A DNA stretch of 64,000 nucleotides from Bremia lactucae (taxonomy: Eukaryota; Oomycota; Peronosporomycetes; Peronosporales; Peronosporaceae). Below are positions 9,609 to 10,899 of this stretch, one piece after another; position 1 is the first letter of the stretch, and every line of letters starts with the position of its first letter. Both the position numbers and the translations under genes were made by a program. The stretch is from NCBI RefSeq assembly GCF_004359215.1, contig NC_090616.1, positions 1,854,469-1,918,468 on the forward strand. Direction: 5' to 3'. Below the pieces are notes generated by a model that made no database searches, was not told the DNA's origin, and was given only the letters and a program-made list of their open reading frames with translations.

Positions 9609-10649
9609 ATGGCAGTACGCACTAAGCGTACTGAAAATGACAAAATAAATGAGTTAGCAGAAGAGTTTCCTCTAACTCAAGAATCAATTATCCGTTTCAA
9701 TCAGGATTCCATTGCTAACGCAGTGGACCGACAGAAACGGAATACAGACAAACATAGAAGAGCAAATGTTCATTCATTTAAAATTAATGATCTAGTGCTA
9801 ATCTCTACGGTAAACTTATCTAAGCGATTAGTCACTAATGTGGGTAGCAGTAAACTACTACCCAAGTTCATTGGGCCTTTCCGTGTACTGCATCGAAGAG
9901 GCAATGCGTACACAATAGAATTGCCACGTAGGATGCGAACGCATCCTACGTTTTACGTTGGTCGGCTCCGCCCGTACCATCAGTACGCGGCTTCTTCCGA
10001 GGACGGATGTGACCACCCTTTTCAAGAATCCCCAAAAGATTCTTGTGATCGCGAACCAGGTTCTCATGTTGAACCTGAAGTTTCTCATGCTTGTTCCGAA
10101 GATCCTCGAAACTACGATGAGCTGACAACAGCTCATCGTGAACAGCATGATAGTTCCGCTCGTACTCCAACAAGGAGTACGCACCCTTCGAACGGTCTTC
10201 CAACCGCTCGATATGGTGATTCTGCACCATCTGTTCCAACGAGCGACGCTTACCGCGCTCGTGTTCAAGACCCTCCTCCAAATCATGGAGGAAGTGATCC
10301 ATTTTGTCGATCTTCGACATTAGATCCGACATACAGTTCGGATCTAATTTCCCCTCCTCCACCACAACCATTGGTGGATTTCCACGGTGGTCAACGTTTC
10401 CTTGTGGAACGTATCCAGAGCCACCGTGATGTGAAGGGGCAGCGAACGAGTTATCTTGTTCGCTGGCGAGGTTATCCACCTTCGCATGACAGCTGGGAAC
10501 CTCGTTCCCAGCTGATTGTTGACGTTGAGGGCCTCGTCCGTCAGTATGACGAGACCCACCCGATGGCTCAGAAGGCCCATCGGAAAACACGCGCCCTTGG
10601 CGCTTGTAAATCGATTGCAAAACGTCAATCGCGTCACGCATCTCAATAG
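9609..10649 (+). CDS. Integrase C-terminus, linker and chromodomain of E2 (open 346 codons)
   Basis: The longest open sense frame of the A family here. From the N-terminus: DRQKRNTDKHRRANVHSF and the GPY/F module (GPFRVLHRRGNAYTIE, VGRLRPYHQY) at about residues 37-120. A 130-residue linker rich in Ser, Thr, Pro, His and Asp follows, then a chromodomain at about residues 258-320 (QRFLVERI, YLVRWRGYPPSHDSWEP, QYDETHP). It is the tail of a Gag-Pol polyprotein, so the first Met is not a real start. The domain guides integration in chromoviruses. The low-complexity linker is exactly where the antisense coiled-coil frame lies on the other strand. Confidence 0.8.
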   Translation: MAVRTKRTENDKINELAEEFPLTQESIIRFNQDSIANAVDRQKRNTDKHRRANVHSFKINDLVLISTVNLSKRLVTNVGSSKLLPKFIGPFRVLHRRGNAYTIELPRRMRTHPTFYVGRLRPYHQYAASSEDGCDHPFQESPKDSCDREPGSHVEPEVSHACSEDPRNYDELTTAHREQHDSSARTPTRSTHPSNGLPTARYGDSAPSVPTSDAYRARVQDPPPNHGGSDPFCRSSTLDPTYSSDLISPPPPQPLVDFHGGQRFLVERIQSHRDVKGQRTSYLVRWRGYPPSHDSWEPRSQLIVDVEGLVRQYDETHPMAQKAHRKTRALGACKSIAKRQSRHASQ

Positions 10650-10899
10650 AGATGCGAGCCCTTCCCCAGGGCGAAGAAAGGGAATAGACATCCCCTTTTA
10701 CCCTCTTCGAGTTGTCTACACAACACGGACAGGGATCACCCCACGTGAGGCATGGAAGTCCAGCCTCACGTGACAACCGATGCAGTTTATACTTTGCACC
10801 TGTTGGAGTTCTTTTCTCAAACATAACGCGATTCGCGTTAAGTTTTGAAGCCAAGCTTCGCGTCCAATGTCTTTTACATTGCGAATGAACGCACTCCAA
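9946..10899 (-). CDS. Antisense coiled-coil protein of A-type Gypsy element (317 codons open)
   Basis: Open minus-strand frame opposite the chromodomain and integrase C-terminus of E2. Visible parts: a basic N-terminal region (FEKRTPTGAKYKLHRLSREAG), a Cys-containing patch (DPCPCCVDN), an RISIEMRDAIDVLQSIYK helix, a polar middle part, and a C-terminal helix from about residue 190 to 290 with leucines in strict heptads (L-x6-L-x6-L-x6-L). The end is TDGTGGADQRKT. Related frames occur in all A copies and, more distantly, in the C elements (49945-51489 and 36986-38290), always antisense to pol. The first Met is probably not the native start: homologous sequence continues upstream towards the 3' LTR in another frame. 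No known family recognised; the architecture would suit a DNA-binding or dimerising regulator, but that is inference. Confidence 0.6.
   Translation of the reverse strand: MECVHSQCKRHWTRSLASKLNANRVMFEKRTPTGAKYKLHRLSREAGLPCLTWGDPCPCCVDNSKRVKGDVYSLSSPWGRARISIEMRDAIDVLQSIYKRQGRVFSDGPSEPSGGSRHTDGRGPQRQQSAGNEVPSCHAKVDNLASEQDNSFAAPSHHGGSGYVPQGNVDHRGNPPMVVVEEGKLDPNCMSDLMSKIDKMDHFLHDLEEGLEHERGKRRSLEQMVQNHHIERLEDRSKGAYSLLEYERNYHAVHDELLSAHRSFEDLRNKHEKLQVQHENLVRDHKNLLGILEKGGHIRPRKKPRTDGTGGADQRKT

What the first reader, a model, noticed from the sequence alone, without database searches (positions are those of the whole stretch)
9946..10899. Antisense leucine-zipper-like gene against the integrase/chromodomain of A-type Gypsy elements
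A 317-codon frame runs opposite Pol. It has a basic block, a Cys patch (DPCPCC) and a long helix with Leu at four consecutive heptad positions. In the sense frame the same DNA is a featureless Ser/Thr/Pro/His linker. Comparing the E1 (7126-7461) and E5 (18604-18888) copies by eye, the antisense frame has about 14 differences in 72 residues, mostly conservative. The sense linker has about 24 in 78, mostly radical. This points to selection on the antisense frame. Antisense accessory ORFs next to the 3' LTR are known in some plant LTR elements (for example Grande), and the retroviral HTLV-1 HBZ is an antisense bZIP. I know of no such description for oomycete Gypsy elements. Regulatory role is inference.
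Basis: partly seen in the sequence, partly recalled or inferred. Interest (0 to 1): 0.92.

Follow-up and report, generated by a model that had tools for sequence, protein, structure and literature searches.

The report
Antisense gene inside oomycete Gypsy retrotransposon
A jumping gene of a downy mildew carries, on the opposite strand and running across the end of its own integrase gene, a second protein gene that evolution has preserved for its own sake, in at least three genera of these plant pathogens; what the protein does is still unknown.

Summary
Confirmed, and larger than described. The frame at 9946-10899 (-) is the 3' half of a ~530-570-codon antisense gene. It starts ~135 bp inside the 3' LTR of a chromodomain Gypsy element and runs back across the pol C-terminus. 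In 43 genomic copies, shared substitutions in the integrase-chromodomain linker fall at antisense third positions (245) more than sense third positions (131; codon-permutation p 0.0015). Sense-only sequence is biased the other way; the chromodomain shows no significant bias. Linker changes silent in antisense but altering the sense protein are 1.5-1.7 times as frequent as the converse. Codon shuffling that keeps the sense protein never left the frame open (0 of 3000). Homologues cover 97% of the query in Peronospora matthiolae (90%-identity clusters of 1335 and 524 sequences) and occur in Hyaloperonospora. In both genera one sense/antisense protein pair is almost wholly compatible with a single DNA in this phase, so the overlap itself is conserved. 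The protein has a helical core with an H/Cys motif and a ~100-residue helix; no bZIP or other known family matches. Antisense accessory genes are known in plant and fungal elements; I found none listed for oomycetes. Transcription and function are untested.

The parts
9946..10824 (-). C-terminal 292 codons of the antisense gene in copy A (the finding)
   Evidence: ORF list; homologues; codon-shuffle null 0 of 3000
10825..11268 (-). Upstream continuation of the antisense gene in copy A, broken by frame shifts and stops; no match to P0232 residues 1-100 here and no LTR start found next to it
   Evidence: tblastn of P0232 residues 101-559 over 11268-9949; LTR scan
9609..10649 (+). Sense pol 3' ORF of the same copy
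   Evidence: Pfam SH3_Tf2-1 E 1.9e-14 and Chromo E 1e-13
9981..10400 (+). Sense linker between SH3-like and chromodomain: kept open, amino-acid sequence nearly free
10401..10553 (+). Chromodomain, read through on the other strand by the antisense gene; no significant class bias
7129..8303 (-). Antisense gene remnant in copy E1 (both strands broken)
11283..12312 (+). Antisense gene remnant in the inverted copy R (its pol lies on -)
18607..18900 (-). C-terminal part of the antisense gene in copy E5, cut off by an insertion
19471..20139 (-). Middle part of the antisense gene in copy E5, beyond the insertion
45601..47267 (-). Nearly full-length but broken antisense gene in copy F; start-codon context at 47267-47265
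   Evidence: tblastn P0232 18-558; start context 141 bp before the LTR; ATG checked
47268..47398 (.). Interval between antisense start and 3' LTR: polypurine tract next to the LTR, INR-like motifs
47399..47843 (+). 3' LTR of copy F, TGTAACGGGG...CCCCGTTACA, 445 bp
37227..37753 (+). Divergent antisense gene fragment opposite a chromodomain on -
50298..51483 (+). Most divergent copy in the window (about 31% protein identity), opposite a chromodomain on -

Best explanation
The frame is the 3' half of a real accessory gene of a chromodomain-bearing Gypsy retrotransposon family of downy mildews. The gene lies on the strand opposite gag-pol. Its start codon is about 135 bp from the 3' LTR; the first ~330 codons lie between pol and the 3' LTR, and the last ~230 overlap the end of pol (chromodomain, then linker). 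Shown: the antisense protein is under purifying selection; in the linker the sense amino acids are close to neutral; at the chromodomain both frames carry constraint; and the overlap in this phase is shared with Peronospora and Hyaloperonospora. Inferred: the gene is transcribed from its own promoter between the LTR and the start codon, and the product works as a self-associating nuclear protein (long helical C-terminus, basic NLS-like ends, conserved H/Cys core) that regulates the element's expression, integration or silencing. The coding claim is near certain (about 0.95). The nuclear-regulator role is the likeliest function but only about 0.4.
For: Position classes in 43 copies, shared changes at sense1/anti1, anti3, sense3: sense-only 20/15/39, linker 183/245/131, antisense-only 38/73/42; linker singletons 82/70/90. 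Codon-permutation p 0.0015 for the linker. Rates over 15 pairs diverged 12-30%, linker: sense-changing/antisense-silent 0.172, the converse 0.103, changing both 0.099; antisense-only region 0.279, 0.112, 0.070; sense-only SH3 the reverse, 0.072, 0.123, 0.049. Fewest stops of six frames, 0.60 per 100 codons. 111 homologues and 533 (best 120 listed), with full-length P. matthiolae clusters of 1335 and 524 members. P0232 (559 aa, 19 members) is 98.3% identical to the window's C-terminal 292 aa (286 of 291). Dual coding: P. matthiolae P0122/P0018 score 177 over ~205 residues; H. arabidopsidis P0139/P0289 score 154 over ~215; shuffles 6-9. Helix 429-536 with block pLDDT 81-98 over 431-540.
Against: No transcript data were available. 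In the assembly every one of the 45 loci examined has a damaged or partial antisense frame; of the 89 matches (78 candidates scored) one spans residues 1-556 of 559 without a stop. The E1 subfamily carries shared breaks in both frames and still has many similar copies, so the gene is not needed in cis for a copy to multiply. Within the 21 A-subfamily copies alone, shared linker changes show no class bias (22/27/25; singletons 21/36/19), so the shared-change signal comes from deeper branches. At genus distance the linker is about equally diverged on both strands (antisense 33-37%, sense 28-39%). Most dual-coding pairs scored low: 23 of 80 reached 18, 2 of 25 passed 100. INR-like motifs occur about as often in the wrong orientation. 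No fold or family match supports any function.
Confidence: 0.85

Rival explanations
1. The open antisense frame is a by-product of codon usage and composition of the sense linker.
For: Long antisense ORFs can arise passively opposite coding sequence (general knowledge); only damaged copies are in the window.
Against: 0 of 3000 synonymous shuffles open, mean longest run 68 codons; substitution classes flip at the frame boundaries; the gene continues for ~330 codons where there is no sense gene.
Confidence: 0.02
2. What matters is the antisense RNA (double strand, small RNA, transcriptional interference), not its protein.
For: Antisense transcripts of LTR elements with no coding capacity are known (review PMC7264820, passages), and small RNAs of both senses map to LTR elements in Phytophthora infestans (PMC3522703, passages).
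Against: Constraint follows antisense codon positions and protein identity across genera; an RNA role would not favour third positions. Both roles could coexist.
Confidence: 0.08
3. The product is a structural or virion-like accessory protein (Gag partner, RNA chaperone, movement protein) rather than a nuclear regulator.
For: A long coiled coil and a Cys/His motif also occur in nucleic-acid chaperones and assembly proteins (general knowledge); nothing found here shows nuclear location.
Against: Opposite orientation gives separate expression control, which a stoichiometric structural protein would not need; NLS-like basic ends. Weak evidence either way.
Confidence: 0.25
4. A captured host gene carried by these elements for reasons of its own.
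For: No family above a Pfam cut-off, so no retroelement homology either.
Against: All seven window places lie opposite a chromodomain; none of the 120 rows listed is named as a host gene (nearly all are unnamed or uncharacterised); the overlap with the chromodomain is shared by other genera.
Confidence: 0.08

Closest known systems
Antisense additional ORFs between pol and 3' LTR (aORF-3R) of plant elements: Grande gene23, RIRE2, Retand, PvRetro13
   Same: Antisense gene at the pol/3' LTR end, conserved across copies and species; function unknown; nuclear for Grande gene23 (review PMC7264820, passages).
   Different: Other kingdom and unrelated sequence: no Transposase_28 match at E up to 1 in 14 antisense proteins. 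About 230 codons run inside pol through the chromodomain; the two plant papers, in the passages I saw, place theirs between pol and LTR (word 'overlap': 0 hits in both). Retand is a non-chromovirus (PMC11963269, passages).
Boty brtn of Botrytis cinerea
   Same: Antisense additional gene of an LTR element in a filamentous plant pathogen (named in PMC7264820 and PMC8365987, passages; original paper not seen).
   Different: Fungal; sequence not compared here; overlap with pol not known to me.
HTLV-1 HBZ
   Same: Antisense gene with an antisense promoter in the 3' LTR and nuclear product (PMC7264820 and PMC11963269, passages); bZIP nature recalled.
   Different: No bZIP match, no basic region next to a leucine zipper, four-Leu heptad not conserved. 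The start codon here lies outside the LTR; the transcription start is unknown.
Chronos elements (oomycete Gypsy with chromodomain)
   Same: Oomycete Gypsy with chromodomain after integrase (PMC5348765, passages and section 5).
   Different: The second RNase H that defines Chronos was not found in the ten pieces of copies E5 and F scanned; the word 'antisense' does not occur in that paper's main text.

Membership tests
Antisense aORF-3R of LTR retrotransposons | ORF antisense to gag-pol | tested here: met
[quoted passage not shown]
   Start about 135 bp from the 3' LTR in 24 of 33 LTR-start matches; but the last ~230 codons overlap pol
Antisense aORF-3R of LTR retrotransposons | Present in most copies and in more than one species | tested here: met
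   7 of 9 chromodomain places in the window; Peronospora, Hyaloperonospora
Antisense aORF-3R of LTR retrotransposons | Transcribed from an antisense promoter | not testable with these tools
   No RNA data held; INR-like and CCAAT motifs only
Retand Transposase_28 (PF04195) antisense protein | PF04195 domain | tested here: not met
   No match at E up to 1 in the 2 + 6 + 6 antisense proteins scanned; one search found none in the genome but its control was empty; sequence level only
bZIP / HBZ-like | Basic region immediately followed by a leucine zipper | tested here: not met
   No bZIP family; RGKRR lies ~50 residues before the zipper; four-Leu heptad absent in P0233, P0234, P0277
Coiled-coil protein | Long helix with heptad hydrophobic periodicity | tested here: met
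   Helix 429-536, block pLDDT 81-98 over 431-540; 453-551 in P0233; strongest of four periods tried is 3.5; oligomeric state not modelled
Chromodomain Gypsy element | Chromodomain downstream of integrase | tested here: met
   Pfam Chromo E 1e-13, SH3_Tf2-1; rve found in E5 but below its cut-off
Chronos | Second, archaeal-type RNase H next to the Gypsy RNase H | tested here: inconclusive
   Not found in 7 pieces of E5 and 3 of F, but these copies are broken and no RT tree was made
Tyrosine recombinase core-binding domain | Fold of the N-terminal SAM-like domain | tested here: inconclusive
   One UniRef name only (P0012); no Pfam match for P0012; fold searches gave no clear match

The most novel reading that the evidence does not exclude
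A retroelement in which one strand has given a stretch of a functional polyprotein over to the other: the integrase-chromodomain linker serves as an open spacer in sense while its amino acids are chosen by an antisense protein, and a chromodomain is dual-coded. The antisense protein founds a new family of retroelement regulators in stramenopiles, evolved independently of those of plants, fungi and deltaretroviruses, and kept since at least the common ancestor of several downy mildew genera or their exchanged elements.
Probability: 0.55. Interest if true: 0.85.

Novelty: new variant of a known kind. Interest (0 to 1): 0.72.

Why it matters
Antisense overlapping protein genes with measured codon-level selection are rare (general knowledge), and the role of antisense accessory genes in LTR elements is an open question in plants (PMC7264820, passages). 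An oomycete case with an unrelated protein points to convergence and offers 90%-identity clusters of 1335 and 524 sequences (P. matthiolae) in which function could be studied. It also matters for annotation: members are listed as uncharacterised proteins, and three H. arabidopsidis members bear the UniRef name 'RxLR effector candidate protein', so effector lists may contain retroelement genes.

Tried and rejected

Promoter: YCAYTYY (consensus from PMC3599244, passages) occurs at about -35 in 14 of 25 intervals and at about -112 in 23 of 25, but the same pattern in the reverse orientation occurs in 19 of 25; ATTGG lies at about -49 in 20 of 25. The copies are related, so these are not independent. 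Mean pairwise divergence of the interval in 22 loci (0.145) is close to that of antisense third positions (0.137); only the stretch next to the polypurine tract (0.018-0.041) and the ATTGG stretch (0.045) are clearly conserved. Candidate only; the FPR part matches poorly.

Dating by LTR pairs: five candidate pairs, of which three (74-76%) are probably not true pairs and two are 93.5 and 95.8%; not used. Dual-coding test: of 80 pairs (ten sense by eight antisense proteins of Peronospora and Hyaloperonospora) 23 reached 18: three sense proteins with seven or eight partners each, a fourth with one, six with none. Of 25 pairs, two passed 100; the rest scored 11-64, among them all five with a P. 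effusa sense protein (16-23). Sense linkers of four Phytophthora proteins are longer (186-217 residues), but whether they carry an antisense gene could not be tested without DNA. Not in print: the listings (open-licence PMC papers; titles and abstract starts only; capped at 15 of 140, 12 of 92, 6 of 40) showed no report of an oomycete antisense ORF; subscription papers were not searchable. One search found no paper with its four terms on mis-annotated effectors.

Full report
What is there. The window lies in a 115.9 Mb, 220-contig genome that is not named. The size fits Bremia lactucae (115 Mb assembly, PMC6570648, passages), but that is inference. At 9946-10824 (-) is an ATG-initiated 292-codon frame opposite a sense pol ORF, 9609-10649 (+), with an SH3_Tf2-1 domain and a chromodomain. 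Antisense codon position 1 faces sense position 1, antisense 3 faces sense 2, and antisense 2 faces sense 3. So the two frames make opposite predictions about which sites may change.

Chance. Shuffling synonymous codons of the sense ORF, with protein and codon usage kept, gave a mean of 8.4 antisense stops; 0 of 3000 shuffles were open, against an observed 232 codons without a stop in the overlap. Among 43 copies the antisense frame has the fewest stops of all six frames over 9949-10824 (73 in 12,258 codons; 16 of 43 copies have none when read in the reference register, where frame shifts are not counted). In the linker alone the sense frame is as clean (14 stops against 20 antisense; other frames 122-454), as it must be to reach the chromodomain.

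Selection. I aligned 45 loci: L009-L028, the best 20 of the 39 non-window matches; L029-L048, 20 of the 40 rows (only three of its thirteen rows with the top non-self score); and five window copies. Two near-identical ones (L030, L031) were dropped, leaving 43. Rows could not be fetched. Fitch changes were counted by position class, separating singletons (mostly neutral decay) from shared changes. Shared changes at sense1/anti1, sense2/anti3 and sense3/anti2 were: sense-only SH3 end 20/15/39; linker overlap 183/245/131; chromodomain overlap 37/34/47; pol tail overlap 16/47/46; antisense-only 38/73/42. Linker singletons were 82/70/90. The binomial p for the linker is 4e-9. The more cautious permutation within codons gives 0.0015 for the linker, 0.041 and 0.047 for the two flanking controls, 0.46 for the chromodomain and 0.98 for the tail. 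Against this, the 21 close A-subfamily copies alone show 22/27/25 for shared linker changes (singletons 21/36/19); the other 22 show 130/183/95.

A second test classed each difference between disjoint pairs of copies by its effect in both frames, divided by opportunity. For 15 pairs at 12-30% divergence the rates (sense-silent only, antisense-silent only, changing both) were: linker 0.103, 0.172, 0.099; SH3 0.123, 0.072, 0.049; antisense-only 0.112, 0.279, 0.070; chromodomain 0.133, 0.101, 0.092; tail 0.202, 0.216, 0.057. The linker ratio of antisense-silent to sense-silent changes was 1.55, 1.64 and 1.68 in the three divergence bands. In the linker, changing the sense protein as well costs nothing more than changing the antisense alone, so the sense amino acids there look almost free. 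Pairs share no tips but may share inner branches.

The whole gene. A protein search with the 292-aa query gave 111 homologues at E up to 0.01, many of them ~500-aa P. matthiolae proteins covering 97% of it at 29-44% identity, plus H. arabidopsidis and P. destructor. A profile search gave 533 (best 120 listed; only the 8000 best candidates scored). It was led by P0232, a 559-aa protein 98.3% identical to the window's 292 aa (286 of 291); further down came P. matthiolae clusters, made at 90% identity, of 1335 and 524 sequences with 529-aa representatives (members not inspected). Intact full-length genes therefore exist. In the present genome P0232 finds 89 matches; one runs 1-556 without a stop, and all 45 loci examined are damaged or partial.

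Geometry. LTR starts read TGTAACGGGG and ends CCCCGTTACA; most are about 405-475 bp. In 24 of 33 LTR-start matches the antisense start context lies 139-146 bp before the LTR, so the ATG is about 130-137 bp from it; 8 have none (mostly 5' LTRs) and one is odd. In the window seven places carry the antisense protein opposite a chromodomain, in both orientations and down to ~31% identity; two chromodomain pieces, 12840-13115 and 57204-57692, have no detected partner.

The overlap is old. I asked whether a sense protein and an antisense protein of the same species could be written by one DNA in this phase. Window control 232; shuffled nulls 6-9. P. matthiolae P0122 with P0018 scored 177 over ~205 residues, which means about 4 misfits. 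H. arabidopsidis P0139 with P0289 scored 154 over ~215 (about 12 misfits), and the unnamed P0112 with P0001 186 over ~207. The proteins of a pair need not come from one copy. Not all pairs pass: 23 of 80 reached 18, and 2 of 25 passed 100. Against P. matthiolae the sense SH3 (78-84%) and chromodomain (73-80%) and the antisense-only core (71-73%) are conserved, while the linker is poor on both strands (sense 28-39%, antisense 33-37%). Sense constraint dominates the chromodomain, antisense constraint the core; the linker evolves fast overall but with the antisense signature within this genome.

The protein. N-terminus acidic, Ser/Ala-rich and predicted disordered; helical core (177-287 in P0232, block pLDDT 39-73) followed by a nearly invariant FEKR...LHRLS.E.G..CL.W.D.C..C motif; Pro/Ser/Gly middle; single helix 429-536 (block pLDDT 81-98 over 431-540) with 3.5 periodicity; basic end RPRKKPR. 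No Pfam, NCBIfam, PDB-sequence or fold match of weight. It does not match bZIP.

How it may work (inference). Opposite orientation gives expression independent of the LTR promoter. A conserved ATTGG (inverted CCAAT) and INR-like sites recall the oomycete core promoter described in PMC3599244 (passages), but INR-like matches are as common in reverse (19 of 25) and only short islands of the interval are conserved. A coiled-coil protein with basic ends most simply acts as a dimer in the nucleus on the element's own DNA or chromatin; a structural role is the main rival.

What is known. [quoted passage not shown] Retand's carry Transposase_28 (PMC11963269, passages). The oomycete chromodomain elements Chronos are described without the word antisense (PMC5348765, passages and section 5). 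The listings of my searches showed no oomycete case. I file it as a new variant of a known kind: new host group, new protein family, and a long selected overlap with pol.

Noticed in passing
homologues P0066, P0080, P0105: Three H. arabidopsidis members of this retroelement-encoded family are named 'RxLR effector candidate protein' in UniRef.
   Followed up: no
7126-8072 and relatives L029-L037: The E1 subfamily has shared breaks in both the antisense gene and the sense chromodomain frame, yet 13 places match E1 with one and the same score and a 14th nearly so. Of the three fetched, one differs from the other two by 6% over 2.5 kb. Spread in trans, duplication or assembly effect.
   Followed up: partly
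interval between antisense ATG and 3' LTR (L012, L019 and others): A dyad AGTGGTCAC-N3-GTGACCACT in several copies; degraded in copy F. Possible binding site for a dimeric protein.
   Followed up: no
11268-11283: Copy A ends and the inverted copy R begins within about 15 bp: two 3' ends of related elements head to head.
   Followed up: no
18902-19481: An insertion splits the pol/antisense region of copy E5.
   Followed up: no
sense homologues P0214, P0219, P0225, P0228: Phytophthora relatives have even longer integrase-chromodomain linkers (186-217 residues); they may also hide an antisense gene.
   Followed up: no
P0012: UniRef calls one H. arabidopsidis member a core-binding domain protein; a possible hint to the fold of the helical core, not confirmed by Pfam or fold search.
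   Followed up: partly
28745-29187 and 1246-1552: Further LTR copies of the same family, on the minus strand and as fragments.
   Followed up: no
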